From positions 2,604,001-2,668,000 of the forward strand of contig NZ_CP089309.1 of assembly GCF_021228795.1 (NCBI RefSeq): 64,000 bases of DNA, in the 5' to 3' direction. Shown here in pieces: positions 2,469 through 31,364 of this stretch; the first letter of the stretch is position 1; the number at the start of each line of letters is the position of its first letter. A program made the translations under genes and the position numbers. The stretch comes from Thiocapsa bogorovii (GTDB lineage Bacteria > Pseudomonadota > Gammaproteobacteria > Chromatiales > Chromatiaceae). The notes under the pieces were generated by a model. The model did no database searches and was not told the origin of the DNA. It saw nothing but the letters and a program-made list of their open reading frames with translations.

Positions 2469-2664
2469 TTAAACCGCGTCCAGAGCGAGATGCTCAATTT
2501 TCGAGTGAGCTCGACGGTTGACGCATCCACGGGCCTAAGCGGGGACGCGGTTTAAAATGATATAATTTTTAATACTTTAAATCTATCCGGCTCCAGCGGT
2601 CGTCAAGTCTGCCGGGGCCCATCGCATCCAAAAAATATCGCATGCCGCGTTGGGCGCGGTTTAG
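2469..2664. repeat. Paired-inverted-repeat intergenic element, copy 1
   Basis: Module A is bounded by a perfect 13-bp inverted repeat, TTAAACCGCGTCC at 2469-2481 and GGACGCGGTTTAA at 2543-2555. An AT-rich linker containing TATAAT (2561-2566) follows. Module B ends in TGGGCGCGGTTTAG at 2651-2664, but its left arm has decayed. Every landmark recurs exactly 28,700 bp away in copy 2 (31169-31364), so total length and internal spacing are conserved. It lies just upstream of the gene at 2691. This non-coding element looks like a MITE- or REP-type dispersed repeat. Confidence 0.8.
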
Positions 2665-2690
2665 CAGCCCCCCGGAACAGAGAATCGAAC

Positions 2691-3548
2691 ATGTGGCTGA
2701 ACCTGGTTTTCCTGTTGTTGCTTGCACTCATCATCATGCCCACGGCCGTTCTGCTCTTCGGGGTCACGCGCTGGCAGGCCGGCACGAACCGGCTGCAAAT
2801 GCGCTTGGAGAAAGGACGGGGCAGGATCATTCCGAACACCTATGATTCGAGCGAGTTGGAGGGACTGCCCGAGCCCGTGCAGCGCTACTTCCTCATGAGC
2901 TTGAAGGACGGCCAACCCATCATCTCCGCTGCCGAGCTGGGGCTCGAAGGGGAGATCGACCTCGGACGCGCTCAGGGCAAATGGTCCCCTACGACGGCGA
3001 CCCAATCGGTGGTCATGCAAAGCCCTGGATTCCATTGGGACGCCCGGGTGCGGATCGCTCCGGCAACGAAGATCTTCGTGCTCGATGCCTATATCGCCGG
3101 CACGGGCATGTTGAAGGCCGCGCTCTTCGGTCTCTTCCCGGTCGTGAAGGTCCCGAGTAGTCCGGAGCTGACCCATGCCGAGCTGATGCGTTTCCTCGCC
3201 GAGGCACCTCTGTACCCGACGAAGCTCCTGCCCAGCCAAGGGGTGGTTTGGGAGCCGATCGATGATCGCTCCGCGCGTGCCACACTCGCCGACGGCGATC
3301 TGAGCGTATCGCTCGTCTTCGACTTCGACGACACCGGCCTGATCGGCGGCGTGCGCGCGAGCGGGCGTTACCGTGCGCTGGACGGGAAGATGGTGCAAAC
3401 GCCTTGGGAGGGCAGCTTCTCGGATTACAAGGAACGCAGCGAGATGCAGATCCCGGTGCGGGCGGAGGTTGCCTGGATCCTGCCGGAGGGGCGCACACCT
3501 TACTGGCGCGGTCGGGTGACCGACGTCATGTACAAGTTCTCCGCGTGA
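2691..3548 (+). CDS. DUF6544-like (formerly DUF6920) membrane-anchored protein
   Basis: A 285-residue protein with one N-terminal hydrophobic helix (residues 3-24), followed by a soluble domain of mixed beta strands. The motif 'LPEPVQRYFLMSLKDGQPI' (about residues 58-76), the 'W.PTTATQSV' block and the C-terminal 'VPVRAEVAWILPEG.PYWRG'-like block are what I associate with the uncharacterised DUF6544 family. That assignment is from memory. No catalytic motif is evident. It stands alone, with a repeat element directly upstream and the divergent ABC operon beyond it. The ribosome-binding site is weak. Confidence 0.65.
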   Translation: MWLNLVFLLLLALIIMPTAVLLFGVTRWQAGTNRLQMRLEKGRGRIIPNTYDSSELEGLPEPVQRYFLMSLKDGQPIISAAELGLEGEIDLGRAQGKWSPTTATQSVVMQSPGFHWDARVRIAPATKIFVLDAYIAGTGMLKAALFGLFPVVKVPSSPELTHAELMRFLAEAPLYPTKLLPSQGVVWEPIDDRSARATLADGDLSVSLVFDFDDTGLIGGVRASGRYRALDGKMVQTPWEGSFSDYKERSEMQIPVRAEVAWILPEGRTPYWRGRVTDVMYKFSA

Positions 3549-3704
3549 ACGGAGGCGCCTGCGGGTGCTGTCGGTGACGTCGTCGAAGCATCGTCAAAAG
3601 GTCGTCTCCTCGCCGGCCGTCGTTTCAATCGGGCTGCTACACCTCCCCTAAGCCCGGGCGCGGTGCTCGGGCCATGCGTGCAATGACCGCTGGAGGGCAC
3701 GACG

Positions 3705-4634
3705 ATGAAACGTATCTACACCGGATTTTTCCTCGCATTATGGCTCGGGTCGACTTGGGCGCAGACGCCGGGGCCCTTGGTCGATGCGGCCTGGATCGCG
3801 GAAAACAGTTGCCTGGAAGATGTGCGCGTGTTGGATATCCGCAGCAAGAAGATCGATGGGGAGTCGCGATCGGAGTATGCACTCGGCCATATCCCTTGCG
3901 CGGTGCATTCCGACTATGTGAAGGCAGGCTGGCGGGCCAAGAAGGGTGCCGTGCCCGGTATGCTGCCGCCCATCGACGAGCTCGAGCGCCTCATCGGCGC
4001 ACTTGGCATCGACGAGACCACGCATGTCGTGGTCGCTCCGCTGGGCGAGAACGCCAAGAGCATGGCGGCCGCGACGCGCGTCTATTGGACCTTCAAGCTC
4101 TTGGGTCATGATCGGGTATCCATCCTGAACGGCGGGACTCGTGGTCATGCCGCGGACAAGTCCCGGTCGCTCGAGACCGGCACGACGACACCCGTGCCGA
4201 AGAGATTCGTCTCCCGGCTCCGCCCCGAGATGCTCCCGGACCACGAGCAGGTGGCAGCAGCCGCGGCCGATGGCGTCGTCTTGGTCGACTATCGCCGCGC
4301 CGACGAGTATCTCGGCATCACGCGAAACGGCAAGACGCAAAAGCCGGGCACGCTGGCGGGCGCCCACAATCTTCCGATCGAGTGGCTGACCGTCGACAAC
4401 GGGGGCACGTTGCGTTCGCCCGAGGCGTTGCGCCGTTTGACGGTCCTAGCCGAGATCGACCCCGAGGCCCCGCAGATCGCCTTCTGCAACACGGGCCACA
4501 ATTCGGCTCTCGGTTGGTTTGTTTCGAGCGAGATGCTGGGCAATGCCCGGTCACGACTCTATGACGGCTCGATGGCGGAGTGGAGTCGGCTGGAAGAGCG
4601 GCCCATCGAGCGAAAGTTCGCTGCAGCCGATTGA
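3705..4634 (+). CDS. Secreted tandem-domain rhodanese (sulfurtransferase)
   Basis: A 309-residue protein with an N-terminal signal peptide (residues 1-20, ending AQ) and two rhodanese domains, so it probably acts in the periplasm. The C-terminal domain has the persulfide-forming Cys261 in the loop 'CNTGHNSALG'. The matching loop of the first domain ('APLGENAKS', about 111-119) has no Cys, so that domain is presumably structural, as in other two-domain rhodaneses. Such enzymes move sulfane sulfur from thiosulfate or persulfides to thiol acceptors, which fits a sulfur-oxidising phototroph. The active loop lacks the usual Arg after Cys, so substrate preference is uncertain. A GGAGGG ribosome-binding site lies about 7 nt before the ATG. 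Confidence 0.85.
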   Translation: MKRIYTGFFLALWLGSTWAQTPGPLVDAAWIAENSCLEDVRVLDIRSKKIDGESRSEYALGHIPCAVHSDYVKAGWRAKKGAVPGMLPPIDELERLIGALGIDETTHVVVAPLGENAKSMAAATRVYWTFKLLGHDRVSILNGGTRGHAADKSRSLETGTTTPVPKRFVSRLRPEMLPDHEQVAAAAADGVVLVDYRRADEYLGITRNGKTQKPGTLAGAHNLPIEWLTVDNGGTLRSPEALRRLTVLAEIDPEAPQIAFCNTGHNSALGWFVSSEMLGNARSRLYDGSMAEWSRLEERPIERKFAAAD

Positions 4635-4679
4635 GGGGTCGCAACGATTCGAACGATGGCGGCGACCCGGGCACTGCGT

Positions 4680-6386
4680 TCAGTCCGGCAGTCCGGCGCG
4701 CCGCAGATCGTCCAGGAAACGCTCGCGATAGATGGGATCCCTGATCGGAAAGGCGCGTCGGACATGCGACACGGAGAAGCCCGGGTCCAGCGCCAAGATC
4801 TCGCGGGTCTCCCACTCCGCATCCCCGGGTCGATCGGCCGCGGCATAAGCCGCCGCGAGCCAGACGCGACTCAACTGAAAACTCGGACTCATGTCGACGG
4901 CGGCCTCGAAATCGGCCAAGGCCCGGTCGATGTCGCCGTTCTCGTAGTGGAGCGCCCCGCGCACGAGTCGGTAGATTGCCGGCACGCGGGGGTTGAGACG
5001 GACCGCCCGCTCCATGCTGACCAGTCCGTCGTCGGCTCGGCCGGCGAAGTGAAGGATCCAGGCTAGCAGCGCATGGGCATCGGCATAATTCGGCTTGATT
5101 GAGATCGCCTCTTCGGCGCTGCGGATGGCGGCGCCGTAGTTGCGTCGATAGAGATCGATCTGGCCCTGCACGAAATAGACTTGAGGGATCATCCGGTCCA
5201 GCGCCCTCGCGCGGGCGATCAACTCTTCCGCCTTTGCCAGACCGTCCTCTGCACCGAGATCCCATCCGTCAACCGCATCACGAACGTAGACCAGTGCGAG
5301 CCCGGCATAGGCTCGGGCAAATTCGGGGTCGATGGCGATCGCCCGGCGATAGTGATCGATCGCCATTTGAGTATCCTGGTGAGAACGTCGTCCATAGTGA
5401 TCGAGTCCGCGGAGAAAGGCATCGTAAGCCTCAATACTCGCGAGGTGACTTCGGCCCAACCTCGCGCGGTCGCTCGGGGCGATCTCGACCTCGATCGCCG
5501 AGAGGATGCTGGCGGCGATCTCGTCCTGCAGCGCGAAAAGGTCGTCGATCTGCCGGTCGTAGCGTTCTGCCCAGAGATTGCTGCCGCGCAGACCGTCGAC
5601 GAGCCGCACATTGATCCGAATCCGGTCCGCGGAACGCTGAAGGCTGCCCTTGAGGACATAGTCGACGCCGAGCTCCCGAGCGATGGCAGGCTCGCTTTCG
5701 GTGCCGCCCCGATACGCAAACGCAGAGTTGCGGGCGACAACCCAGAGACCGGAGAGCTTAGACAAATCGGTAATCAGATCCTCGGTAATACCGTCGGCGA
5801 AGTAATCCTGCTCCGGAACGGCGCCCAGGTTGACGAAGGGCAGAACCGCGATTCCGGGGATGTGACCCGAGGTCGGAACCGTTCCGCCGCCGTCGGAGAC
5901 CGTCGGATCGCTCCCGTTCGGGAGAAGCCAGACGGCGATCAAGCTGAGCACAACGAACGCGGCCAGGCTGCGTAACGCGATCGGCCAGGGGGCTCGCGCG
6001 GCCCGCCCGGCCGGGAGATCCGGCGGATCTTGCACCCCGCCTCGAACCTCGGCGATCAGACGGTATCCGCTCTTGGAGAGGGTCTCGATATAGCGCGGGT
6101 GACGGGCCTCGTCGCCGAGTGCCTTGCGCAGCTTGATGATGGCGCTGGTCACCGCATCGTAGGTCACAACCATCCCGGGCCATGCTTCCGCCTCCAATTC
6201 CTCGCGCGAGACCACGGTCCCCGGGCGCGCGGCGAGAAAACAGAGGACCTGCATGACCTTCGGTTCCAGCTTGATTCTTCTGGTCCCGCGGCGAATCTCG
6301 TTGGAGCGTGCATGGACCTCCCACTCGCCGACGGCGAAGGGTGCATCCAGCCGCGAGAAGGTCTCCGGATCGCGGGTCGTCGGCAA
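4680..6386 (-). CDS. CadC-like membrane regulator: winged helix, TolB-like domain, TPRs
   Basis: A 568-residue single-polypeptide regulator. Residues about 20-110 form an OmpR/CadC-type winged helix ('REELEAEAWPGMVVTYDAV', 'SGYRLIAEVRG'). A proline-rich linker and a single transmembrane segment (about 137-156) follow. Next is a TolB/FlgO-like domain beginning 'IAVLPFVNLGAVPEQDYFAD' (about 175-290), then TPR-type helices to the C-terminus. DNA binding would be cytoplasmic, with the TolB/TPR part periplasmic and sensing an unknown signal. This architecture is widespread in proteobacteria but the ligands are unknown. It is oriented away from the rhodanese gene and has no obvious operon partner. 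Confidence 0.85.
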   Translation of the reverse strand: MPTTRDPETFSRLDAPFAVGEWEVHARSNEIRRGTRRIKLEPKVMQVLCFLAARPGTVVSREELEAEAWPGMVVTYDAVTSAIIKLRKALGDEARHPRYIETLSKSGYRLIAEVRGGVQDPPDLPAGRAARAPWPIALRSLAAFVVLSLIAVWLLPNGSDPTVSDGGGTVPTSGHIPGIAVLPFVNLGAVPEQDYFADGITEDLITDLSKLSGLWVVARNSAFAYRGGTESEPAIARELGVDYVLKGSLQRSADRIRINVRLVDGLRGSNLWAERYDRQIDDLFALQDEIAASILSAIEVEIAPSDRARLGRSHLASIEAYDAFLRGLDHYGRRSHQDTQMAIDHYRRAIAIDPEFARAYAGLALVYVRDAVDGWDLGAEDGLAKAEELIARARALDRMIPQVYFVQGQIDLYRRNYGAAIRSAEEAISIKPNYADAHALLAWILHFAGRADDGLVSMERAVRLNPRVPAIYRLVRGALHYENGDIDRALADFEAAVDMSPSFQLSRVWLAAAYAAADRPGDAEWETREILALDPGFSVSHVRRAFPIRDPIYRERFLDDLRRAGLPD

Positions 6387-6574
6387 GGGTCAAGCCTCTA
6401 TCGGCGCGGCTTCAAGTCGCTTCAGTCTTGAGTTTAGACCCTGTTCCGGGTCTTTCTCCGCATGCGGCGCACGCCTACAAGCTATGCGTCGGCCCGCACC
6501 CTTGACGCAATTCCACCGATTGTCCTTGGTGCGGTTTGGAGGATTGAAAACACCAGGATCAAGGAGATCCGGTT

Positions 6575-6997
6575 TCAGATTTGCGGCGGCACGAGTGGAG
6601 CGTGACCGCTGCGACGGCGAATCCAATTGATTCCGTTGAGAACACGCCCTTTGCTCGCGAGTCGGCGTTCAAGCGCGAATTTGCCGGGAAAGTCGCTCAA
6701 CACCAGCCCCATGATGATGGTGAGAATCCCCTGACCGGGGAGCACCAGCATCAGGATACCCGCCAGGACCAAGATCCAGCCGACCAGGTTCTTGAGCAAC
6801 CGCAGGCTGAGGTAGGCGACGGGATGGAGTCTCTTCAGACGTGCCGAATGCCGCTCCGGGTCCACGAAATAGTCTTCCGGGATCCGCGCCAAGAGGAACG
6901 GCAAGGCGATCAAGGATCCCACGAACATCAGGACTGAAAGTCCGGCCAAGGACAGAAGCAACCCCTGATGGGCCTCGACCCAACTCATGTCGATCAT
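6575..6997 (-). CDS. PGPGW-motif small transmembrane protein
   Basis: A 140-residue inner-membrane protein with hydrophobic segments at about residues 10-35 and 70-100. The second carries the 'LVLPGQGILTIIMGL' motif of the PGPGW family, whose function is unknown. The C-terminal tail is basic and cytoplasm-like ('INWIRRRSGHAPL'). GGAGGCGAGG on the minus strand precedes the ATG. The 188 bp between it and the downstream regulator gene shows only a weak GACCC/GGGTC stem, so co-transcription is not excluded. Confidence 0.75.
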   Translation of the reverse strand: MIDMSWVEAHQGLLLSLAGLSVLMFVGSLIALPFLLARIPEDYFVDPERHSARLKRLHPVAYLSLRLLKNLVGWILVLAGILMLVLPGQGILTIIMGLVLSDFPGKFALERRLASKGRVLNGINWIRRRSGHAPLVPPQI

Positions 6998-7252
6998 CGC
7001 CCTCGCCTCCCGGGCCCTCGGCGGGCTCTTATTCGCGTGCAGTACCCGAGCGCCGATCTGCAGCGCGCTCGGGAGGCAAACCTCGACCTGTGTCGCAGAC
7101 CGTATCGCCCGCCATCCAGTCGGGCCGCCCGGCGCAGTCTATGCTTGAGGGGTGACGCCGGAAACGCTTGGACGGTCGAAGACCAGGCTCAAGCCTCGTT
7201 GCGAAGACACCACACCAACGAGGAAAAATCAACACTTTCGATAGACCGCGGA

Positions 7253-9855: not shown

Positions 9856-10049
9856 GGACAAAAGACCTCGCAGGGTAAAACGCATCCGGGGCGATCAATG
9901 AGGCGGGTGGGTCGGGGCAAACCTCGTCGCCAACCGAAACCTTGGCGAGACGCGTTTTATATCAATAAATTAAAAATCTAAAAACGCCCCATCCACAAGG
10001 GCATCGGGTCGGTACAACCCAGCGCAAGAATGACGGCCTCGGACGGTAC

Positions 10050-11219
10050 TCATGTGGCGCTTTTACAGGTGAGCTTGAAGGCCACGCAGGGATCGATCGC
10101 CGTAATCAGAAGCTCGGCCTGTCGACGCACCTGCTCTTCGGGGCCGGGCGGCAACGCCTCCAGCGCTCGTGCAACGACGCCGCGCGGGTGAAAGTTCCAC
10201 TCTGTCGGGGCAAGGATTCGGTAATCGCGAACGCGGCCATCCTCGACTCGGACCAGATGCGCCAGGAGTCCGCGCGCCGCGAAGACACGTCCGAGCCCGA
10301 CTCCGTTACCGCTCGCAAGCGTCGGCTGCGCCGAGGCGCTCCCCGCGCAACAGCGGCTCAACAACCGCAAGCCGGTTGCGACCACCGTGAGTTGAGCGGA
10401 AAGGCGGACCAAGAGACCCGGCCCATAGGCCTCGATCAGCGGCAGTGGGTGAACACGCGTAAAGGGGCTGGTCTCGCGCGGTTGGCCCTGCCAGGTCGGA
10501 TGAGCAACGAACTCGGCCCAATCCGGTGCGCTCATCCGCGCGATTAGATCCTCGTCCGAGAGTCTCGGCAGCGCGCTGATCGGGGCCTGCCCGAGCGATG
10601 CTTCTCCCGATTCCAGAAGAGAGCGCAACAGACGTGCCGCCACCGTCTCCGTCTTGCGACACCAGCGCTCGAAGCCCGAGGGGTCGCCGATCAGGTTCAA
10701 AAAGTGCTCGGGCGAGACTCCGAGCACCCTATGGGTGAGCAGATCGGTCAGATCGGTGAGCAGGACATCGAGACCGAGGGGGTGATCCGCCGCCGAATTC
10801 GCACCGACGCCGAACAGATCGCCGTCAGGGTCGAGCCGCGCGAGGATGCGGTTCGACAAGGCAAGGACCGCCGCCATGTCATCACGGCAAGGCGGCTCGC
10901 CCAAGATTGCGGGCCAATCGAGCAGGATTCGCCACAGGTGCTCCCGGATCGTCTCCGCCGCGATCGCCGCCTCGCGCCGTCCGCGGATGATCGGGCTCGC
11001 AACCCACCCGGAGGCCTGCTCGAATGCCCCCGCGCAGGCGCCGGCTTGGGCGCGGGCACAGATCGAGAAAAGCAGCGGCAGACGAGCGGCCGTCTCGTGC
11101 GGCGAGCGCCCGACGAAGGCCGACGCGGCAGCGACCGGACGCGTCGAGGCGATCGTGCAGACGAGGCCGCCCGAGGATGGTGTCAATTGAATGTCGAGGC
11201 TTCCACCCGGATCGGACAT
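10050..11219 (-). CDS. hupK: Hydrogenase expression/formation protein HupK
   Basis: A 389-residue protein related to hydrogenase large subunits but lacking their full metal-binding set. The C-terminal 'AIDPCVAFKLTCKSAT' echoes the large-subunit DPCxxCxxH motif without its final His. The N-terminal large-subunit motif is reduced to isolated Cys residues ('SICARAQAGACAGAF', about 52-66). HupK is thought to help assemble the NiFe(CN)2CO centre, perhaps as a scaffold. It is the first gene of hupK-hypC-hypD-hypE, 194 bp before hypC. No structural hydrogenase genes are in the window. Sequence similarity among HupK proteins is low, so the call rests on context plus the C-terminus. Confidence 0.85.
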   Translation of the reverse strand: MSDPGGSLDIQLTPSSGGLVCTIASTRPVAAASAFVGRSPHETAARLPLLFSICARAQAGACAGAFEQASGWVASPIIRGRREAAIAAETIREHLWRILLDWPAILGEPPCRDDMAAVLALSNRILARLDPDGDLFGVGANSAADHPLGLDVLLTDLTDLLTHRVLGVSPEHFLNLIGDPSGFERWCRKTETVAARLLRSLLESGEASLGQAPISALPRLSDEDLIARMSAPDWAEFVAHPTWQGQPRETSPFTRVHPLPLIEAYGPGLLVRLSAQLTVVATGLRLLSRCCAGSASAQPTLASGNGVGLGRVFAARGLLAHLVRVEDGRVRDYRILAPTEWNFHPRGVVARALEALPPGPEEQVRRQAELLITAIDPCVAFKLTCKSAT

Positions 11220-17849: not shown

Positions 17850-19584
17850 CCCGGATGTTTCATAAACCGACACAGCCGACACTGGCCTCGCGGATTTGCG
17901 CGGCGCTGGGCGTCACCGAGGGCGATGACCGGGACGCCGCGGGGGTTGAATGGTGGAAATACCGAGCGGCAACGGGCTTGATCAACGGGGCACGAGTAGT
18001 TTTGTCGCCGCGCAGGCGTACGATGCCCTGCCCGAGGTGGGCATAGTCGTCGTGCGCGTGCTGAAATCCCCGTGCGGGGATGTATGTGCGTCTAGGCGGG
18101 CGCCGCCCGGGGCTGCGCGTTGAAGAGCCTCTCGGTGACCTGCTGCAACAGCGTCTTGACCGGACAGCTCGAGGGCAGGTGCAGGCGCACGCGGTCTTTG
18201 TACTGCACCACGCGCACGGCGAGCTTGAACAGTTTGATGATCACGGTGGCAGGCTGGGCGTTGGCCAGTTCCGTGCCGACGAGGACCTCGGTGCGCAGCG
18301 TTTGGTGCAAGACGTAAGCGGCGCAGGAGAAGAACAAGCGCATCTGATTGGCCAAGAAGGTGCTGTCGGAAGTGCGATCGCTGGCCAGATCGTTCTTGAT
18401 CATTTTGATGAAGTTCTCGTCCTGGCCGCGCGCGCAGTACAGATCGCGGTAGACGCACTCGGGACTGGGCAAGTCCAAGGAGGTGACGACGAAGCGGAGG
18501 TTGTCGCCGCGCGCCGTCACCTCGGCTTTGAGGATGGTCCGACACGCGCCGGGCCAGGAACCGGCACGGTAGTCAACCTCGTGGTAGGTGCGGGTCCGCT
18601 CGGGTACGTCGGCGTCGGCGCGCCGGGCGTTCTCGATGCGCAGCGCATGGAGCTTGCGGGCGTCGGCCAAGAACGGCTCGGCCCGTGGCGTGAGAGCCCG
18701 GTTACCCGCCAGGCCGAAGATGAAATCCGTCAACGGATCGGCCATCGCCAAGGCCATCAACTCGGGGTTGGAGAAGTGTCCGTCGCCGCGCAGGATGATG
18801 CGTGTGCGTGGCCACGCGGCCCGCAGCCGCTTGAGCACGCGCTTGAGGATCATCGCGTTCTCGGCGCCGGTGGGGCGCTTGCCGGGACGCAGCACCGCGG
18901 TGATGAACTTCCCCGAGAGGCCCTCGAAGAGAAACAGCGGCAAGTAGCAATGGTTGCCGTAGTGATGATTGTAGAACGCGAACTCCTGCTGGCCATGGGT
19001 GGCGTCTTCGGAGTGGTCCATATCGAGCACGATCACCTGCGGCGCCTTCGGGTAGCTGGCGATGAAGGCCTCGACGAAGGCCTGCGCCATGCGGTAGAGG
19101 TCGCGCGCGCCGACCCCATTCTCCAAACGCGAGAAGGTCGGCCCGCTGGCCAGGTCCGTCGTCGCATCCAGCGGCTTGCGCTCCAGCCCCAGCTTGAACA
19201 GCGCATCACGGCGCAGCGCATTGGCGTCGTTGCCGTCTTCGTAAGCACAGGCGATCTGGTAGACCCGTTGCGCGATCAGCTCACGCATCGGATGGGTGGT
19301 GTAGGACGGATGGCGCCAATCATCGATCGCTGCGCTCAACCGCTCGGTCAGGCCGATCTGCCGATCAACCCCGCGCAGAATCATGGGGCCAAAGTCAGAC
19401 GACATGGCGCCGCCGTCGAAGTCGCCGCGGACCGTGAAACCGGCGACCGGGGGAAAACGCAGCTGTTCCGGGGTAGACTCGGGCATGGGCGACCTCGTTT
19501 AGCTTCTTCCGAAGCGTTCTTGGCGGAACAGCCATTTTATCAATGGGTTGAACGAGAGTCGCCCTTTTTTATGAAATATTCGGG
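17850..19584 (-). mobile_element. IS1380-family insertion sequence, copy 1 (1735 bp)
   Basis: Terminal inverted repeats are CCCGGATGTTTCATAAA (17850-17866) and its imperfect complement at 19568-19584 (15 of 17 positions match). TTAA at 17846-17849 and 19585-19588 is the 4-bp target duplication. A single transposase gene runs on the minus strand. A palindrome at 18066-18081 (ATCCCCG/CGGGGAT) lies downstream of the transposase stop and may act as a terminator. Length, protein and antisense frames are identical in copies 2 and 3, indicating recent spread. Confidence 0.95.
18092..19486 (-). CDS. IS1380-family transposase (IS copy 1)
   Basis: A 464-residue DDE transposase. The first catalytic Asp lies in 'VIVLDMDHSEDATHGQ' and the second in 'IILRGDGHFSNPELMALA'. 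The Glu region is 'GQDENFIKMIKNDLASDRTS', followed by the family's 'NQMRLFFSCAAYVLHQ' helix. Length and motif order fit IS1380 (DDE_Tnp_1 group). GAGG about 8 nt before the ATG is the ribosome-binding site. The gene is intact, so the element should be able to move itself. Confidence 0.95.
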   Translation of the reverse strand: MPESTPEQLRFPPVAGFTVRGDFDGGAMSSDFGPMILRGVDRQIGLTERLSAAIDDWRHPSYTTHPMRELIAQRVYQIACAYEDGNDANALRRDALFKLGLERKPLDATTDLASGPTFSRLENGVGARDLYRMAQAFVEAFIASYPKAPQVIVLDMDHSEDATHGQQEFAFYNHHYGNHCYLPLFLFEGLSGKFITAVLRPGKRPTGAENAMILKRVLKRLRAAWPRTRIILRGDGHFSNPELMALAMADPLTDFIFGLAGNRALTPRAEPFLADARKLHALRIENARRADADVPERTRTYHEVDYRAGSWPGACRTILKAEVTARGDNLRFVVTSLDLPSPECVYRDLYCARGQDENFIKMIKNDLASDRTSDSTFLANQMRLFFSCAAYVLHQTLRTEVLVGTELANAQPATVIIKLFKLAVRVVQYKDRVRLHLPSSCPVKTLLQQVTERLFNAQPRAAPA

Positions 19585-20450
19585 TTAAGAACTTTCTTTC
19601 AAATGCCGTGAAGTTCACCGAGCAGGGCCGCATCACCCTCGCGGTCGAAGCGGGAGAGGATCGCCAAAAAGAGGTTGCACTCAGTGTCGCCGACACCGGA
19701 ATCGGGATCCCTCACGACAAACAGGACATCATCTTCGAGGCCTTCCAACAGGCCGACGGATCGACGCGCCGCCGCTACGGCGGCACAGGCCTGGGACTCT
19801 CCATCAGCCGAGAGCTCGCGCTCTTGCTCGGCGGACGGATCCAGGTCGAGAGCGCGCCGGGTGCCGGGGCCTGCTTCACCCTCGTCATGCCCGTCGCGGC
19901 CGTCGCTGTGGAGCAGGAAGGGATCGTCTCCGCGGCCGCACCCGCGAGCGCACATGTCACTCCCCTACCGCCCACGGACTCGCCCGGCGCGCTGCGCCCA
20001 ACCTCGGCCAGGGGTTCCGGCGCCGGCGCGAGCGGCGGCTGGGTCCTGATCGTCGAGCGCGACGTCAAAACCCTCGTGCAACTCGCCTCCGAGCTGTCGC
20101 GGCGAGGTCTTCGTATTCAAACCGCAGCCGATCTCGACGAGGCACTCGAGACCCTGCAGGAAGAGGGTGAAGGTTGCGAGCTGGTGCTGCTGGCGGCCGG
20201 GATGTCCGACGAAATGACCTGTGCTACGATTCAGACACTACTGAGCCGCAATGCGGGGCCGCATCCGGCCGTTGCCGTGCTCGGCGATCGATCGGCCAAG
20301 AACCGGGTTGCCGATTGCTTGGGTGCCGGTGCCGTGGAATTTCTCTCGAAACCCATCGATCCCGATCAACTTACGGCGCTGCTGGCCGAGGTGCTGCCGG
20401 AGAGACCCGTCCCGGAGGCATCCGCAGCGGCACCCGAACCGATCGTTTGA
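19585..20450 (+). pseudogene. Hybrid sensor histidine kinase, 3' part (HATPase plus degenerate receiver)
   Basis: Beginning with the second TTAA, the frame continues '[14 protein letters not shown]' (N box), then '[15 protein letters not shown]' and '[15 protein letters not shown]', which is the missing half of the ATP-binding domain. A linker leads to a receiver-like domain ('[14 protein letters not shown]', '[14 protein letters not shown]'). Where the phosphoacceptor Asp should stand, the sequence reads '[12 protein letters not shown]', with Ala at that place. The receiver was therefore already unable to take phosphate before the IS arrived, or it works as a pseudo-receiver. No start codon with a ribosome-binding site makes this piece an independent gene. 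Confidence 0.9.
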
Positions 20451-20883: not shown

Positions 20884-22618
20884 CCCGGATGTTTCATAAA
20901 CCGACACAGCCGACACTGGCCTCGCGGATTTGCGCGGCGCTGGGCGTCACCGAGGGCGATGACCGGGACGCCGCGGGGGTTGAATGGTGGAAATACCGAG
21001 CGGCAACGGGCTTGATCAACGGGGCACGAGTAGTTTTGTCGCCGCGCAGGCGTACGATGCCCTGCCCGAGGTGGGCATAGTCGTCGTGCGCGTGCTGAAA
21101 TCCCCGTGCGGGGATGTATGTGCGTCTAGGCGGGCGCCGCCCGGGGCTGCGCGTTGAAGAGCCTCTCGGTGACCTGCTGCAACAGCGTCTTGACCGGACA
21201 GCTCGAGGGCAGGTGCAGGCGCACGCGGTCTTTGTACTGCACCACGCGCACGGCGAGCTTGAACAGTTTGATGATCACGGTGGCAGGCTGGGCGTTGGCC
21301 AGTTCCGTGCCGACGAGGACCTCGGTGCGCAGCGTTTGGTGCAAGACGTAAGCGGCGCAGGAGAAGAACAAGCGCATCTGATTGGCCAAGAAGGTGCTGT
21401 CGGAAGTGCGATCGCTGGCCAGATCGTTCTTGATCATTTTGATGAAGTTCTCGTCCTGGCCGCGCGCGCAGTACAGATCGCGGTAGACGCACTCGGGACT
21501 GGGCAAGTCCAAGGAGGTGACGACGAAGCGGAGGTTGTCGCCGCGCGCCGTCACCTCGGCTTTGAGGATGGTCCGACACGCGCCGGGCCAGGAACCGGCA
21601 CGGTAGTCAACCTCGTGGTAGGTGCGGGTCCGCTCGGGTACGTCGGCGTCGGCGCGCCGGGCGTTCTCGATGCGCAGCGCATGGAGCTTGCGGGCGTCGG
21701 CCAAGAACGGCTCGGCCCGTGGCGTGAGAGCCCGGTTACCCGCCAGGCCGAAGATGAAATCCGTCAACGGATCGGCCATCGCCAAGGCCATCAACTCGGG
21801 GTTGGAGAAGTGTCCGTCGCCGCGCAGGATGATGCGTGTGCGTGGCCACGCGGCCCGCAGCCGCTTGAGCACGCGCTTGAGGATCATCGCGTTCTCGGCG
21901 CCGGTGGGGCGCTTGCCGGGACGCAGCACCGCGGTGATGAACTTCCCCGAGAGGCCCTCGAAGAGAAACAGCGGCAAGTAGCAATGGTTGCCGTAGTGAT
22001 GATTGTAGAACGCGAACTCCTGCTGGCCATGGGTGGCGTCTTCGGAGTGGTCCATATCGAGCACGATCACCTGCGGCGCCTTCGGGTAGCTGGCGATGAA
22101 GGCCTCGACGAAGGCCTGCGCCATGCGGTAGAGGTCGCGCGCGCCGACCCCATTCTCCAAACGCGAGAAGGTCGGCCCGCTGGCCAGGTCCGTCGTCGCA
22201 TCCAGCGGCTTGCGCTCCAGCCCCAGCTTGAACAGCGCATCACGGCGCAGCGCATTGGCGTCGTTGCCGTCTTCGTAAGCACAGGCGATCTGGTAGACCC
22301 GTTGCGCGATCAGCTCACGCATCGGATGGGTGGTGTAGGACGGATGGCGCCAATCATCGATCGCTGCGCTCAACCGCTCGGTCAGGCCGATCTGCCGATC
22401 AACCCCGCGCAGAATCATGGGGCCAAAGTCAGACGACATGGCGCCGCCGTCGAAGTCGCCGCGGACCGTGAAACCGGCGACCGGGGGAAAACGCAGCTGT
22501 TCCGGGGTAGACTCGGGCATGGGCGACCTCGTTTAGCTTCTTCCGAAGCGTTCTTGGCGGAACAGCCATTTTATCAATGGGTTGAACGAGAGTCGCCCTT
22601 TTTTATGAAATATTCGGG
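20884..22618 (-). mobile_element. IS1380-family insertion sequence, copy 2 (1735 bp)
   Basis: It has the same ends as copy 1 (CCCGGATG at 20884, ATTCGGG ending at 22618). The 4-bp target duplication is TTAG at 20880-20883 and 22619-22622. It lies in the same orientation as copy 1, with 1299 bp between them. Its own matching duplication shows that it inserted independently. Confidence 0.95.
21126..22520 (-). CDS. IS1380-family transposase (IS copy 2)
   Basis: The product is identical over all 464 residues to the transposase at 18092-19486, with the same catalytic Asp/Asp/Glu motifs and start context. It is intact. Confidence 0.95.
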   Translation of the reverse strand: MPESTPEQLRFPPVAGFTVRGDFDGGAMSSDFGPMILRGVDRQIGLTERLSAAIDDWRHPSYTTHPMRELIAQRVYQIACAYEDGNDANALRRDALFKLGLERKPLDATTDLASGPTFSRLENGVGARDLYRMAQAFVEAFIASYPKAPQVIVLDMDHSEDATHGQQEFAFYNHHYGNHCYLPLFLFEGLSGKFITAVLRPGKRPTGAENAMILKRVLKRLRAAWPRTRIILRGDGHFSNPELMALAMADPLTDFIFGLAGNRALTPRAEPFLADARKLHALRIENARRADADVPERTRTYHEVDYRAGSWPGACRTILKAEVTARGDNLRFVVTSLDLPSPECVYRDLYCARGQDENFIKMIKNDLASDRTSDSTFLANQMRLFFSCAAYVLHQTLRTEVLVGTELANAQPATVIIKLFKLAVRVVQYKDRVRLHLPSSCPVKTLLQQVTERLFNAQPRAAPA

Positions 22619-23112
22619 TTAGGTTGATCGAAAAAGAGCGCGAGCTCAACCGCACGCTTGAGCAAACGGTCGCGCAACGCACGGCCGAGCTCGCCGAGGC
22701 GCGGCAGTACCTCGAGAACATCATCACCCATATGGGCGAAGCGCTCTTGGTCTTGGATCCGAGCGGCACCATCAAGCACACCAATCCGGCAGCCTGGAAG
22801 ATGCTCGGCTATGGCGAGGGCGATCTGCGCGGCATGTCCATCGGAGACGTGTTCGAAGAGGAAGGCGATGCCGAAGCCGGCGCCTTCATGGGAACCTGGC
22901 TCGAAGCGCTGATCCGCACCGGAGCCTTGAGCCGGATCGAGGCCCGTTTCATCGCCCGCGACGGGCGGCGGGTCCCGATTCTCTTCTCGAGGACCGCGGT
23001 GAAGGATCCGGAAGGACATATCAGCGATATCATCTGCATCGCAAAGGACATGACCGGCTATGTGCGGGTCGGGGAGAACGGGAACGCGAGAGCCCTGCCG
23101 ACAGGGGGATAA
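22619..23112 (+). pseudogene. REC-PAS regulator, 3' part (coiled coil and PAS)
   Basis: After the second TTAG the frame reads 'RLIEKERELNRTLEQ', a coiled coil extending through 'AQRTAELAEARQYLENI'. A PAS domain follows ('ALLVLDPSGTIKHTNPAAWK', 'GYGEGDLRGMSIGDVFEEE') and ends with the PAC-like 'ARDGRRVPILFSRTAVKD'. No kinase, GGDEF or DNA-binding domain follows the PAS, so the intact 290-residue protein was probably an adaptor or a truncated descendant of a larger kinase. The piece has no obvious start of its own. Confidence 0.85.
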
Positions 23113-26064: not shown

Positions 26065-27402
26065 TTAAAGGATGTAACCGCGCTCGCCGTGCTGAGAAAG
26101 ATCGAGACCTTCGGTTTCCTGCTCTTCGGTGACACGTAGCCCGATGAGCAGATCGACCAGCTTGAGGATGATGTAGGTCAGGATCACGGTGTAAACCAAG
26201 GTGAACAGAACTCCTTTGGTTTGGATCCATACCTGCCCGAGCATACTCATGCCCTCGGCGAGACCCGCACCGCCGAGCGCGGCCGAGACGAACACGCCGG
26301 TCAAGATCGCGCCAACGATACCGCCGACCGCATGCACGCCGAAGACGTCGAGCGAGTCGTCATAGCCCAACGCGCGCTTGAGCTTGGTCGAAGCCAGGAA
26401 ACAAACGATGCCGGAGGCAAGGCCGATGGCGAGCGCGCCAAGCGGACCGGCCGTTCCGGACGCGGGCGTGATCGCAACGAGCCCGGCGACCGCGCCGGTA
26501 GCGATACCGAGAACGCTCGGCTTGCCGTGCGACACCCACTCGGAGAACATCCACGCGAGCGCGGCCGCCGCCGTCGCGACCTGAGTCACCAGCATCGCCA
26601 TTCCGGCACTTTCGTTCGCGGCGACGGCGCTACCGGCATTGAAGCCGAACCACCCCACCCAGAGCATCGAGGCGCCCATCAGGGTGTAGCCCAGATTATG
26701 CGGAGGCATGGCCGTATGCGGATAGCCCCTGCGCTTCCCCAAGACCAATGCGGTGACGAGACCCGCGACCCCCGCATTGATGTGCACCACGGTGCCGCCT
26801 GCGAAGTCCAGAACGCCCCAGTCCCACATCAGAGCCCCGTCGCCGCCCCAAACCATATGAGCAATCGGCAGATAGACGACGGTGAACCAAAGCCCCATGA
26901 ACCAGAGCAAGGCGGAGAATTTCATGCGTTCCGCGAAGGCGCCGACGATGAGAGCCGGGGTAATGATGGCGAAGGTCATCTGAAAGGTGGCAAAGACAGT
27001 CTCGGGAATGGCCGCCGTGAGGCTCTCGCGTGTCACCCCGCCGAGTAGGACCTTATCCAATCCACCGATGAAGGTGTTGATGTTGAGAACACCCGACTCC
27101 ATGCCCTGCGTTGAAAAGGCGAGGCTATAGCCGTAGAGAACCCAGAGAATCGTCATGAGTGCAGCGATAGCGAAACACTGCATCAATACCGAAAGGACGT
27201 TCTTGGCGCGCACCAAACCGCCGTAAAAAAGCGCCAAACCCGGGATGGTCATGAAGAGAACAAGTGCCGTCGCCGTCAGCATCCAGGCCGTATCGCCGCT
27301 GTTCAAAACAGGCAGCTCCTCGGCCTTCGCCAGTGCAGGCATCAGCAGCCAGAGAGCCGCCAAAGCCGGTACGGCCAGTCGTCGCGGTTCCAGTGTGTAC
27401 AT
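26065..27402 (-). CDS. amtB: Ammonium transporter AmtB
   Basis: A 445-residue ammonium channel with a signal peptide (residues 1-27, ending 'ALAKAEE'), as in processed AmtB. 'TIPGLALFYGGLVRAKNVLS' is the Amt signature. Pore His residues are in 'GTVVHINAGVAGLV' and 'DVFGVHAVGGIVGA'. The C-terminus 'RVTEEQETEGLDLSQHGERG' is the conserved GlnK-interacting tail. It lies 23 bp downstream of glnK, the classic glnK-amtB pairing, and is probably induced in nitrogen limitation through the upstream sigma-54 promoter. Confidence 0.96.
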   Translation of the reverse strand: MYTLEPRRLAVPALAALWLLMPALAKAEELPVLNSGDTAWMLTATALVLFMTIPGLALFYGGLVRAKNVLSVLMQCFAIAALMTILWVLYGYSLAFSTQGMESGVLNINTFIGGLDKVLLGGVTRESLTAAIPETVFATFQMTFAIITPALIVGAFAERMKFSALLWFMGLWFTVVYLPIAHMVWGGDGALMWDWGVLDFAGGTVVHINAGVAGLVTALVLGKRRGYPHTAMPPHNLGYTLMGASMLWVGWFGFNAGSAVAANESAGMAMLVTQVATAAAALAWMFSEWVSHGKPSVLGIATGAVAGLVAITPASGTAGPLGALAIGLASGIVCFLASTKLKRALGYDDSLDVFGVHAVGGIVGAILTGVFVSAALGGAGLAEGMSMLGQVWIQTKGVLFTLVYTVILTYIILKLVDLLIGLRVTEEQETEGLDLSQHGERGYIL

Positions 27403-27425
27403 CGTTGCGATCCTCTCGGCGACGA

Positions 27426-27770
<345 letters not shown>

Positions 27771-27784
27771 TTAGCTCCTGTAGA

Positions 27785-27806
27785 GGCCAAGGGCTAACCC
27801 TTGGCC
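27785..27806. other. Stem-loop between torF and glnK
   Basis: GGCCAAGGG-CTAA-CCCTTGGCC is a perfect 9-bp stem in the 77-bp gap between torF and glnK. No T-run follows on the minus strand. It may set relative transcript stability within the operon, since a porin and a PII protein are needed in different amounts. Confidence 0.55.
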
Positions 27807-27841
27807 GAGGGATTGGAATCGCGAGTGCGAGGCGGGGTGCT

Positions 27842-28621
27842 TCAGAATTCCTTCAACCAGCCGACCCAGAACTGCGGATCGTCGTTATAGGTATCGCGTC
27901 CGACTTGGTCGTAATTCAAGCTGAAGGTGCCGAAATCGCCGGCTTCGCGACTGATGGTCACACCCCAATGGCCGTAGTCGTTGCCGCCGTCGTTGTAATC
28001 GAAATCATAATAGCCGCCGCGAAGCCCGAGACCGAAATCATAGGGCAGTGCGAAATCGAGACTGGCGTAGTAATACCAGTCACCTTCGACGAAGAGCGCT
28101 TCACTGGAAGGCACGCCGGGCGCGTCGTCGGCCTGACCATAGACCGTGTAGGCCAGACCGGCCGTCAACCATTTCCAAGTCGCACTGCCGCCGATTTCCG
28201 CGAAATCGAGATCCTTGCCGTCGGGATAGGCGTAATAGATGGCGTTGACGTCGAAGCTAAAATCGTCGTTGATGGATTTGCTGAAACCCAAGTAGCCATC
28301 GAGCTCGTACCCGGGCGAATCAGAGGTCGTGACATCGAATGTTTGGCCCTCGAAATCGACTTCGTAATCGACGCTGCTTCCGAAATCGACGTTTGAGGCC
28401 CAGGTACCCGCGTAGAAGCCGCTGCTGTGCTCGTAATCGATCCCGCCCTGAACAGCCGGGCCGTTGTCGGTCTGAGTCAGGCCACGGAAGAAGTAGTTGC
28501 TGACGACGCCGATATTGGCGCTGAAGTTATGCGTCTCGTCGGCCGCGGCGTTCTGGAAAGCGCCCGCGCTCACGGCGAGCGCCCCAAGCGCGAAAGCGGT
28601 TCCGATGCGTCGTGTTGTCAT
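27842..28621 (-). CDS. TorF-family putative outer-membrane porin
   Basis: A 259-residue protein with a signal peptide (cleavage near 'QNAAADETH') and alternating beta strands ending in 'FWVGWLKEF', a C-terminal aromatic typical of outer-membrane barrels. 'NIGVVSNYFFRGLTQTDNGP' is the hallmark of the family (TIGR02001). Such genes often sit beside glnK-amtB, so a role in uptake of nitrogen compounds is suspected but unproven. It is the first gene behind the sigma-54 promoter. Confidence 0.85.
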   Translation of the reverse strand: MTTRRIGTAFALGALAVSAGAFQNAAADETHNFSANIGVVSNYFFRGLTQTDNGPAVQGGIDYEHSSGFYAGTWASNVDFGSSVDYEVDFEGQTFDVTTSDSPGYELDGYLGFSKSINDDFSFDVNAIYYAYPDGKDLDFAEIGGSATWKWLTAGLAYTVYGQADDAPGVPSSEALFVEGDWYYYASLDFALPYDFGLGLRGGYYDFDYNDGGNDYGHWGVTISREAGDFGTFSLNYDQVGRDTYNDDPQFWVGWLKEF

Positions 28622-28723
28622 TGCTGTGTGCCTCTCGATGATGCGGGCTTGCTAGTCGAGGTTAGAAGAGACCGGCTGGTGCCCGAGTGACCGCGCCGGT
28701 TGTGACGTTGTGATGTCGAAATA

Positions 28724-28739
28724 AGCAGATAGCGTGCCA
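28724..28739 (-). promoter_or_regulatory. Sigma-54 (RpoN) promoter of torF-glnK-amtB-amt
   Basis: On the minus strand TGGCACGCTATCTGCT shows the -24 TGGCACG and -12 tTGC-type elements, with the invariant GG and GC exactly 10 nt apart. The only deviation from TTGCW is one base. It points at torF, with an untranslated leader of roughly 90 nt. It implies activation by an enhancer protein, most likely NtrC. Confidence 0.8.
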
Positions 28740-29228
28740 TTAGGCAATCGCGCCCCAAGCAAGAGGCGTTTCAGCATCATGTTGCAAGCGCGCAACTTTA
28801 AACCGCACCAAACCAAGGCATGAGCGGATGCCTCGAAGAACCGAGCGCACCAGAAGGGTGCGGCGATGTGAGCGTCAACCGACCGTCGACTCACTTTCCC
28901 CTTGAGCCGGCCCGTTTACCGAGCGCTCGTTGGTTTTTCCGAAACAGGGGGCGTCCCGCAGGCGTCGGGACGAGTTGCCGGTGCCGCATAGCGGTCATGA
29001 GGACAAGGAGGCGCAACACCGACCGGCGCGCGCGGGGCGTTCAACCTGGTCCCGGCAGTTGAGCAGCGCTCGGAGGCGGCCCGCGCGATGTTCGTGGATC
29101 GCAGGGGCCTTCACCGGGCCGCGAGCCATCGAACCAAAGCGATCGTCAAGGCCGCCATGACCTTGCGTGACGTGCGCAAAGTCACCTGACGGATCCAGTC
29201 AATGCGGCGATAACCCCCGTGCGCTCGG

Positions 29229-29236
29229 TATATAAT
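29229..29236 (+). promoter_or_regulatory. Probable sigma-70 -10 element upstream of ubiK-comM
   Basis: TATATAAT is the only strongly AT-rich hexamer in this GC-rich leader. It lies about 124 bp before the ubiK start. The -35 region is not convincing (GCGATAA around 29207-29213). Confidence 0.35.
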
Positions 29237-29359
29237 GGCGGGCAGTTGAGTTGCCGCGCCTCTCGCGACGCTGAAGTCGTTGCGGGATCGATCCGAGTAT
29301 CCCCGCGTCCACGCCGGACCCACATGCCAACCTAAGGCCGCAAGTCAGGAGTAAACCCC

Positions 29360-29626
29360 ATGCTGGATCCTAAACAGCTCGACGATCTCGCCCAGCGCCT
29401 CGCATCGGCGATGCCGAAAGGCATTCAGATGTTGCAGGAAGACATCGGCCGCAATCTCCGAGCGTCGCTCGAGTCCGGACTCGACAAGCTCGACCTGGTC
29501 ACCCGCGAGGAGTTCGACGTCCAATCGGCCGTCCTGGCGCGCACCCGCGAGAAACTGGCTGCGCTCGAAGCACGCATTGCAGAGCTGGAGCGCGCGCACC
29601 CATCGGCACGTATAGAGGTGGATTGA
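29360..29626 (+). CDS. ubiK: Ubiquinone biosynthesis accessory factor UbiK (BMFP/YqiC)
   Basis: An 88-residue protein: an amphipathic N-terminal membrane-fusogenic half ('LAQRLASAMPKGIQMLQED') and a C-terminal coiled coil ('VLARTREKLAALEARIAEL') that trimerises. UbiK binds UbiJ and supports the aerobic ubiquinone-biosynthesis metabolon. 'VTREEFDVQ' between the halves is a family motif. It lies 22 bp before comM, an arrangement common in gammaproteobacteria. Confidence 0.93.
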   Translation: MLDPKQLDDLAQRLASAMPKGIQMLQEDIGRNLRASLESGLDKLDLVTREEFDVQSAVLARTREKLAALEARIAELERAHPSARIEVD

Positions 29627-29648
29627 CCTCCCGAGAGCAAGCACGCTC

Positions 29649-31172
29649 GTGGCCCTCTGCATCCTGCACAGCCGTGCGCGGGTCGGTATCCATGCCCCCG
29701 CAGTAACGGTCGAGGTCCATCTTTCAGGAGGGCTGCCCTACCTTTCGATGGTCGGCTTGCCGGAAATGGCGGTCAAAGAGAGTAAGGACCGGGTGCGCGG
29801 CGCACTACTGAACGGCCGATTCCAGTTTCCGATGGGCCGGGTCACCATCAACCTGGCACCCGCTGATCTGCCGAAAGAGGGCGGGCGCTTCGACCTTCCC
29901 ATCGCGCTCGGCATCCTCGGCGCCTCCGGACAGATCGCTACCGAGCGGCTCGAGCAGTACGAATGGATCGGGGAGCTGGCACTCTCGGGAGCCCTGCGAC
30001 CCGTCAACGGCGTCTTGCCCGTCGCCGTGGCGGCACGCGAGGCGGGCCGCGAGCTGATCCTGCCGGCCGAGAATGCGGCCGAGGCGTCGCTGGTTTCAGG
30101 GCTCGACATCCGACCGGCGCGGCATCTCATGGAGGTTTGCGAGCATCTCAACGGTGCGCGTGTGCTGCCGACCTTCGAGGCGAGCGAACGGATTTTCGTC
30201 GAGCCCGTCTATCCCGACCTCGCGGAGGTCAGGGGTCAGGAGCATGCGAAACGGGCTCTGGAGATCGCCGCCGCGGGTGGCCACAGCCTCCTCTTGATCG
30301 GCCCGCCCGGCACCGGAAAGTCGATGTTGGCGAACCGCCTCCCCGGACTATTGCCGCCGCTGAGCGAGGACGAAGCGCTGGAGGCGGCGGCGATCCGCTC
30401 GGTGAGCGACCGCGACCTGTTCGACCCGGCGCGCTGGCGCGAGCGCCCGTTTCGCTCGCCGCACCACACGGCATCGGGCGTCGCGCTGGTGGGCGGCGGC
30501 AGCAACCCGCGGCCGGGCGAGATCTCGCTCGCGCATCAAGGGGTCTTGTTCCTCGACGAGTTGCCCGAATTCGACCGCAAGGTCCTGGAGGTCTTGCGCG
30601 AGCCCCTGGAGTCCGGACATATCGACATCTCGCGGGCGGCACGACAAGCACGCTTTCCAGCGCGATTCCAGCTGATCGCCGCGATGAATCCCTGTCCATG
30701 CGGCTATCTCGGCGACAACAGCGGGCGCTGCCGTTGCACACTTGACCAGGTCGGACGCTATCGGGGACGCATCTCCGGGCCGCTGCTCGACCGGATCGAC
30801 ATGCACGTCGAGGTCCCGAGACTGGACCTTTCTCGGCTTGGCGAATCCGCCTCGGAGACGCGGGAGACGACAGCGCTCGTGCGCAGCCGAGTGGATGGTG
30901 CACGGACCCGCCAGATCGCGCGCGCGGGCAAGGCCAATCATGCCCTCGGACCCGCCGAGATCGAGCGCGACTGCGCCCTGGAACCCGACGGCCAACACAT
31001 GATCCAGCAGGCGATCACCCGCCTGGCCCTTTCGGCGCGCGCCTACCACCGGATCCTGAAAGTGGCTCGGACGATCGCGGATCTCGATGGACTCGCGCGG
31101 ATCGAGCAGCGACATCTCGGCGAAGCAATCGGTTACCGTCGGCTCGACCGCGGCAATCCGGCACCCACCTAA
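29649..31172 (+). CDS. comM: ComM/YifB magnesium-chelatase-like AAA+ ATPase
   Basis: A 507-residue AAA+ protein starting with GTG. The N-terminal ChlI/Lon-like domain begins 'LCILHSRARVGIHAP' with 'GLPEMAVKESKDRVRGAL'. Walker A is 'LLIGPPGTGKSMLANRLPG' near 218, Walker B is 'GVLFLDELPEFDRK' near 299, and the cysteine motif 'NPCPCGYLGD' follows. In naturally transformable species ComM is a helicase that drives branch migration during homologous recombination of incoming DNA. The TAA stop lies within the left arm of repeat copy 2. Confidence 0.94.
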   Translation: MALCILHSRARVGIHAPAVTVEVHLSGGLPYLSMVGLPEMAVKESKDRVRGALLNGRFQFPMGRVTINLAPADLPKEGGRFDLPIALGILGASGQIATERLEQYEWIGELALSGALRPVNGVLPVAVAAREAGRELILPAENAAEASLVSGLDIRPARHLMEVCEHLNGARVLPTFEASERIFVEPVYPDLAEVRGQEHAKRALEIAAAGGHSLLLIGPPGTGKSMLANRLPGLLPPLSEDEALEAAAIRSVSDRDLFDPARWRERPFRSPHHTASGVALVGGGSNPRPGEISLAHQGVLFLDELPEFDRKVLEVLREPLESGHIDISRAARQARFPARFQLIAAMNPCPCGYLGDNSGRCRCTLDQVGRYRGRISGPLLDRIDMHVEVPRLDLSRLGESASETRETTALVRSRVDGARTRQIARAGKANHALGPAEIERDCALEPDGQHMIQQAITRLALSARAYHRILKVARTIADLDGLARIEQRHLGEAIGYRRLDRGNPAPT

Positions 31173-31364
31173 ACCGCGTCCAGAGCGACATGCGTCATTG
31201 TCATCATGTATTCGGCCTTGAGGACGTCACCACCCTTGCTGGAGACGCGGTTTAATATTCTAAATTTTTTCAAAGCTTTAAACCGCGCCAGCCCCGACTA
31301 TTCTCATGTCTACCGGGGCCGACCCCACCCAAAAACATCACGTACCGCGCTGGGCGCGGTTTAG
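31169..31364. repeat. Paired-inverted-repeat intergenic element, copy 2
   Basis: Module A arms are TAAACCGCGTC (31170-31180) and GACGCGGTTTA (31244-31254). Module B arms are TAAACCGCGCC (31279-31289) and GGCGCGGTTTA (31353-31363). Both modules are intact here, each about 85 bp with an AT-rich linker between them. The left arm provides the comM stop codon, and the right end is 10 bp before the yheS start, so the element fills the whole intergenic gap. Conserved blocks shared with copy 1 include CCGCGTCCAGAGCGA and CTGGGCGCGGTTTA-like sequence. Confidence 0.85.

What the first reader, a model, noticed from the sequence alone, without database searches (positions are those of the whole stretch)
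2469..31364. 196-bp non-coding element with two tandem hairpin-like modules in two copies
Copies at 2469-2664 and 31169-31364 keep every landmark at exactly the same spacing (offset 28,700), though the interior has diverged. Each has an 11-13 bp AAACCGCGTC/GACGCGGTTT inverted repeat, an AT-rich linker, and a second module bounded by AAACCGCGCC/GGCGCGGTTT. Conserved length with divergent sequence points to selection on structure, or to a mobile MITE with fixed ends. Both sit just before a plus-strand gene.
Basis: seen in the sequence. Interest (0 to 1): 0.75.

Follow-up and report, generated by a model that had tools for sequence, protein, structure and literature searches.

The report
Stop-codon-sitting mini-transposons of purple bacteria
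The two repeats are members of a large family of tiny gene-less transposons in purple sulfur bacteria, related by their ends to an ordinary insertion sequence, that come as single 85-bp and twin 193-bp units, often sit exactly on a gene's stop codon, and keep their paired ends better than their interiors.

Summary
The repeat is real and is a MITE family (miniature inverted-repeat transposable elements: gene-less transposons moved by another element's transposase). The window's genome has 166 modules with both arms exact (reversed-pattern control 0); 8 of 11 genomes of its genus, own included, have 100-509.

A likely parent is an IS630-family insertion sequence of about 1.27 kb in related genomes, with TAAACC... 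ends; one end of each module type matches it over 32 nt, beyond the 11-bp arm. Orthologous sites without the element at 13 loci fit insertion at TA (TA visible at 7), for single modules (82-86 bp) and twins (191-194 bp).

Beyond an ordinary MITE: length stays near 84-86 bp although many interiors look random; in 54 of 111 elements the terminal TAA is a gene's stop codon; in orthologous copies arms differ at 8.1% against 23.3% for interiors; changes in both arms match at 29 of 52 loci, 6.5% expected. No RNA-strand preference was seen. No intact parent of this type was found in the genus.

The parts
2470..2554 (+). copy 1, T module (85 bp) with perfect 11-bp arms TAAACCGCGTC/GACGCGGTTTA
   Evidence: orthologous element in G004, G010, G003; site empty in G002
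2555..2577 (+). copy 1, AT-rich linker between the two modules (right edge approximate, since the inner arm has decayed)
2578..2663 (+). copy 1, C module; outer right arm GGCGCGGTTTA intact, inner left arm decayed in this genome (intact in orthologues G010 and G003)
   Evidence: orthologues in G004, G001, G002, G008, G010 and, for the C half, G007
9979..10065 (+). third twin, decayed C module (arms about TAAAAACGCCC/GGCGCTTTTA)
   Evidence: read by eye, against the relatives' copies
31170..31254 (+). copy 2, T module; its first three bases TAA are the stop codon of the upstream Mg-chelatase-family gene 29649-31172
31255..31278 (+). copy 2, AT-rich linker
31279..31363 (+). copy 2, C module with perfect arms TAAACCGCGCC/GGCGCGGTTTA
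   Evidence: only the C module stands at the orthologous site in G003

Best explanation
A MITE family in Chromatiaceae related to, and probably derived from, an IS630-family insertion sequence. Shown here: the unit is an 84-86 bp module with 11-bp terminal arms, one end of which resembles the IS end over 32 nt; two modules in opposite orientation around an AT-rich linker of 22-24 bp in most cases make the roughly 193-bp twin, whose two outer ends are both of the IS-like kind; single modules and twins are each present or absent as units at orthologous sites; the clean sites show one TA in the relative where the element has TA at both ends, and the flanks are Y before and R after the TA. Inferred: an IS630-family transposase binds the ends in trans, cuts the element out and pastes it into TA. 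Inferred: because both ends read TAA inwards, insertion into the TA of a TAA or TAG stop codon restores a stop in either orientation, so stop codons are safe seats, and about half of the elements studied sit there. Inferred: length and arms are held because one transposase complex must bridge both ends of a very short DNA (arm starts about 74 bp apart, close to seven helical turns). After insertion the arms remain under some DNA-level constraint whose agent is unknown.
For: Copy number and control. Length: with exact arms whose starts lie 40-200 bp apart (307 pairs), 274 have total length 81-92 bp, 258 of them 84-86 bp; 4 lie at 104-153 and 29 at 187-200 bp; in a second set limited to 82-88 bp, 450 of 483 are 84-86. 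Empty sites: 16 element/genome pairs at 13 loci (7 twins, 6 single modules), kept by a script that required the flanks to meet within -10 to 12 bp; TA readable in a relative at 7 loci. Flanks: Y before TA in 473 and R after it in 465 of 483 modules. IS relative: L285 in G006, three copies in G135 and others; 13 of 13 fetched loci carry at least one TAAACC... end, 7 carry two; at 9 or fewer mismatches such an end was not found in 180,970 shuffled bases. IS630 by NCBIfam NF033545 (E 4.1e-52) and Pfam DDE_3. First 32 nt of T, T2 and inverted C match three IS ends at 24.7, 22.6 and 22.9 positions on average, against 16.5 for arm plus random (99% = 21); the opposite ends give 17.1, 16.2, 16.5. Stop codons: 54 of 111 elements, against 138 of 957 empty non-coding or stop YTAR sites; 471 more YTAR sites lie inside called genes.
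Against: No intact transposase of this type was found in the genus: own best match 28% identical, an 86-residue remnant at 56% in G001, and the G006 copy holds 2 TGA in the match. Six IS-bearing genomes have 0 or 1 exact modules. So the present mobiliser is unproven; it may be lost, or be another IS630. At 6 of 13 empty loci the relative shows TC, TG, TT or an unclear base pair instead of TA, and at one of the 7 counted loci TA is seen in G001 but not in G000. MITE biology alone does not predict constraint on the arms of fixed copies.
Confidence: 0.9

Rival explanations
1. Older copies have been taken over by the host: the two arms, at fixed spacing, are a paired binding site for a DNA-binding protein, or a DNA structure element, kept at gene ends. 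(Not exclusive of the MITE origin.)
For: Between orthologous copies arms differ at 73 of 902 and interiors at 606 of 2599 positions, arms lower in 15 of 16 module sets. Among loci with one change in each arm 29 match and 23 do not, 6.5% matching expected. Matching changes are commoner in modules with diverged interiors (22 matching, 8 other two-change modules) than in the rest (20 and 37), and 27 of 29 loci have them in positions 2-6, inside the TAAACC that begins every IS end listed. Equal G.U and A.C counts point to DNA rather than RNA.
Against: The orthology test rests on 41 comparisons of about five physical loci, and copy 1 is the exception (3/22 against 8/63). Interiors may be replaced by conversion between copies, which would inflate their divergence: copy 2 in G007 carries another subfamily's interior. 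One-sided arm changes outnumber kept pairs 91 to 6 among orthologues. 15 of the 29 loci are TGAACC, possibly one subfamily. Three genomes of the genus have no exact modules.
Confidence: 0.25
2. Matching arm changes come from a mutational process, template switching that corrects imperfect inverted repeats, without selection.
For: Would give paired changes without strand preference.
Against: Does not explain why arms change more slowly than interiors or why length is kept.
Confidence: 0.2
3. The arms form a stem in RNA and the element acts as a regulatory RNA or transcript-end structure.
For: The two whole twins fold better than shuffles (z -4.3 and -6.7); about half the elements begin at a stop codon.
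Against: Inverted repeats fold well by construction. No Rfam match in the window. G.U 43 to A.C 39 at unpaired arm positions; interior folding z -0.34 and -0.09. Flanking gene orientation 67 tandem, 22 convergent, 21 divergent, 1 at an edge, close to the background 495:122:135.
Confidence: 0.07
4. REPIN-like element moved by a RAYT (Y1 tyrosine transposase).
For: Conserved ends with variable interior resemble REPINs; 14 Y1_Tnp matches in the own genome.
Against: Y1_Tnp matches occur in 11 of 11 genus genomes, including the 3 without exact modules. Of 8 own Y1_Tnp loci fetched (of 14 matches), one has a paired module, 1.3 kb away. TA at empty sites and IS630-like ends fit another enzyme.
Confidence: 0.02

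Closest known systems
RUP of Streptococcus pneumoniae with IS630-Spn1 (passages read: PMC3049150; PMC2229807)
   Same: 107-bp repeat, 108-110 copies, ends like those of an IS630-family IS, insertion at TA.
   Different: Here two unit sizes (about 85-bp module and about 193-bp twin), up to 509 exact modules per genome, interiors that range to random at near-fixed length, about half of the studied copies on stop codons, and no intact parent found in the genus.
IS630 family, e.g. ISY100 (passages read: PMC2170065)
   Same: TA target duplicated on insertion; the IS in G135 is IS630 by NCBIfam and its relatives share the ends.
   Different: The elements carry no transposase; only one end of each module resembles the IS beyond the arm.
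Correia/NEMIS elements of Neisseria (passages in PMC2229807)
   Same: TA at the termini, terminal inverted repeats, two size classes.
   Different: Different ends; the size classes there differ by an internal 50-bp block, here by doubling of the module.
REPIN/RAYT systems (search listing only, PMC3116915; details recalled)
   Same: Conserved ends, variable interior, many copies.
   Different: No RAYT link found; TA at empty sites; IS630-like ends.

Membership tests
MITE (miniature inverted-repeat transposable element) | short, non-coding, terminal inverted repeats, many dispersed copies | tested here: met
MITE (miniature inverted-repeat transposable element) | target-site duplication and empty orthologous sites | tested here: met
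   13 loci without the element in a relative; TA readable at 7, not at 6
IS630-derived MITE | ends shared with an IS630-family IS | tested here: met
   over 32 nt at one end of each module type, only the arm at the other
IS630-derived MITE | mobilised in trans by that transposase | not testable with these tools
   no intact close transposase in the genus; needs a transposition assay
RUP | sequence homology with RUP | not tested
   compared by described anatomy only
REPIN/RAYT | linked RAYT gene flanked by the same repeats | tested here: not met
   only part of the Y1_Tnp loci were fetched
REPIN/RAYT | GTAG/GTGG-tagged short hairpin at the ends (recalled) | tested here: not met
   arms read TAAACCGCGYC
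structured RNA family | Rfam match | tested here: not met
   0 matches at gathering thresholds in the window
structured RNA family | G.U tolerated over A.C at arm pairs on the transcribed strand | tested here: not met
   43 G.U to 39 A.C

The most novel reading that the evidence does not exclude
A whole MITE population has been turned into host DNA architecture: old immobile copies, often fused to gene ends through the stop codon, keep two symmetric 11-bp sites about seven helical turns apart, with letters that change together, because a dimeric DNA-binding protein bridges them; interiors are free to drift.
Probability: 0.2. Interest if true: 0.75.

Novelty: new variant of a known kind. Interest (0 to 1): 0.47.

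Why it matters
It offers a dense, comparable population of bacterial MITEs in which a monomer and an inverted twin coexist and are each gained or lost as units, with a plain way of living in gene-dense genomes: ends that recreate a stop codon. The slow change of the arms in orthologous copies makes the old question of whether such repeats are merely parasitic directly testable.

Tried and rejected
REPIN/RAYT was tested and dropped. The multi-copy IS630 of G001 was examined as a parent and rejected: its ends are TATACCT..., unlike the arms. A plasmid search and a viral-contig scan found nothing. A first orthologue test gave arms 112/1452 (7.7%) against interior 804/4170 (19.3%), but the query arms had been chosen near consensus, which alone could halve their divergence; I replaced it by comparison between target genomes. 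The count of matching changes (42 of 87 two-change modules) includes orthologues of one locus; one search counts loci. In one search a further 20 loci have both changes in one arm. The gene caller is my own crude script; the 111 elements include orthologous copies counted in each genome. One search repeats the stop-codon test without gene calls, with all YTAA/YTAG sites as control (963 of 7062 end an open run of at least 150 codons, against 198 of 611 element ends). The pairing of the bases just outside TA (331 of 483 against 243 expected) fits a palindromic target and is not taken as structure. I did not build a covariance model. One module pair was left out for low identity. Whole-length homology of T with inverted C was not tested; only their ends were compared.

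Papers: passages read in PMC3049150, PMC2229807, PMC4853749 and PMC2170065; others seen as search listings only. A search for Thiocapsa with 'miniature inverted-repeat' gave 0 papers; among the rows shown I saw none on this family; the library is open-access only, so this is not proof of novelty.
Full report
Observation. Both 196-bp copies exist where stated, 28,700 bp apart, with the T-module arms and the outer right arm in register. In copy 1 the inner left arm of the second module has decayed, so the description of a second bounded module fits copy 2 only. In the window's genome (5.65 Mb) the arm TAAACCGCGYC occurs 257 + 250 times against 2 + 4 for the reversed pattern, and 166 modules have both arms exact against 0.

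Distribution. Of 56 genomes searched, 10 have exact modules: 8 of 11 in the own genus (100 to 509 each), 2 of 24 others in the family (43 and 1), 0 of 21 others in the class. No match in viral contigs or plasmids.

Anatomy. A module is 84-86 bp with 11-bp arms, TAAACCGCGTC (T) or TAAACCGCGCC (C), inverted at the other end. Exact-arm pairs with starts 40-200 bp apart have total lengths 81 (1), 82 (3), 83 (6), 84 (82), 85 (134), 86 (42), 87 (4), 91 (1), 92 (1), then four at 104-153 and 29 at 187-200, the twin range. In a set of 336 elements, 192 were single, 141 twin and 3 longer. The twin is T, a linker of mostly 22-24 bp, and C; the IS-like 32-nt end lies at the left of T and the right of C, that is on both outsides. 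Interiors range from close relatives to no better than shuffled sequence: 76 of 483 modules lie at or below the 95% level of shuffles, and 79% of these are still 84-86 bp long (the set was limited to 82-88 bp, so the free-length count is the better evidence for fixed length).

Mobility. I compared 1.19 Mb of syntenic DNA from seven genomes. Sixteen element/genome pairs, at 13 loci, show the site without the element; the script kept only pairs whose flanks meet within -10 to 12 bp. In 10 of 16 the empty site has exactly 2 bp between the flanks, in four 1 bp, in one 3 bp, and in one -4 bp. TA is readable in a relative at 7 of 13 loci, most cleanly CTCC-TA-ATCT, GGTT-TA-GCCC and GGTT-TA-ATGC; at the other 6 the relative reads TC, TG, TT or is unclear, and at one of the 7 loci TA is seen in G001 but not in G000. 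Seven loci are twins and six single modules, so both kinds come or go as units. Copy 1 of the window is absent from G002 and reduced to a truncated C module in G007; G001 has another twin nearby instead. Copy 2 has only the C module in G003.

Parent. Among IS630-type loci of the genus one, L285 in G006, has TAAACC... ends of 32 nt on both sides of 1,277 bp. A search of 116 family genomes found homologues of its transposase in 5. All 13 loci fetched carry at least one such end, 7 carry two, and G135 has three copies 99.9-100% identical; the ORF read in one of them is 396 aa and NCBIfam calls it IS630. The left 32 nt of the module types match these ends well beyond the arm and the right ends do not. 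In the own genus a close homologue is present only in G006, interrupted by 2 TGA, plus a fragment in G001. The six IS-bearing genomes have 0 or 1 exact modules. So kinship is shown by the ends, but the working mobiliser in MITE-rich genomes is not known.

Stop codons. With a crude gene caller, 0 of 111 elements overlap a called gene by more than 40 bp, and in 54 of 111 the TAA at an element end is the stop codon of the adjacent gene, against 138 of 957 empty YTAR sites outside gene interiors. Without gene calls, over 611 element ends, open runs of at least 150 codons end at the element's TAA in 198, against 38 and 100 in the two other frames, and against 963 of 7062 YTAA/YTAG sites at large. 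In the window, copy 2 gives the stop of the Mg-chelatase-family gene 29649-31172, where G009, without the element, has TGA (read).

Constraint after insertion. Comparing orthologous copies between genomes other than the one used to find them (41 comparisons), arms differ at 73 of 902 positions and interiors at 606 of 2599; arms are lower in 15 of 16 module sets, which stand for about five physical loci; the exception is copy 1. The strongest case is the twin at window 9876-10065, with variant arms in both halves, between a hydrogenase-like gene and hypD. Among loci with one change in each arm, 29 match and 23 do not, with 6.5% matching expected; 20 more loci have both changes in one arm. Fifteen of the 29 are TGAACC, which may be one subfamily; the others are of seven kinds. 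Arm positions that do not pair show G.U 43 and A.C 39 on the transcribed strand, and interior folding is near that of shuffles, so I place the constraint at DNA level. Against pairing selection, one-sided changes among orthologues outnumber kept pairs 91 to 6.

Verdict. A new MITE family of IS630 kinship, in working principle like RUP, with unusual features: monomer and twin, near-fixed length with free interior, stop-codon seating and slowly changing arms. Confidence in the MITE reading is high; the reason for the fixed length and for the arm constraint is open.

Noticed in passing
window 18080-19588, 21114-22622, 45178-46686: A 502-aa ORF pattern occurs three times with the same sub-ORF lengths, so this is probably a repeated mobile element; the first 502-aa frame has no Pfam match, and the real gene may be the 464-aa frame on the other strand.
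   Followed up: partly
window 9876-10065: A variant twin with TAAAACGC arms between a hydrogenase-like gene and hypD, present in seven genomes of the genus; its arms change little while its interior does.
   Followed up: partly
G010 region (L231-L233 reversed), 6785-6867: A T module is inserted into the linker of an older twin in G010, together with about 5 bp of linker-like sequence.
   Followed up: no
T modules, reverse reading: Read by eye, one reverse frame of common T modules is open through the whole module and ends at the far TAA, so an insertion in that frame could add some 27 residues to a protein; open runs in one of the other two frames at element ends (100 of 611) exceed the remaining one (38 of 611).
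   Followed up: no
G001 genome (L291, L298, L300, L306): Near-identical 1.17-kb IS630 copies with ends TATACCT...AGGTATA, unlike the MITE ends.
   Followed up: yes
L190, L317, L322, L331, L333: A module with TGAACC/GGTTCA arms lies about 1.3 kb from a Y1-type transposase gene in five genomes, apparently one orthologous neighbourhood.
   Followed up: no
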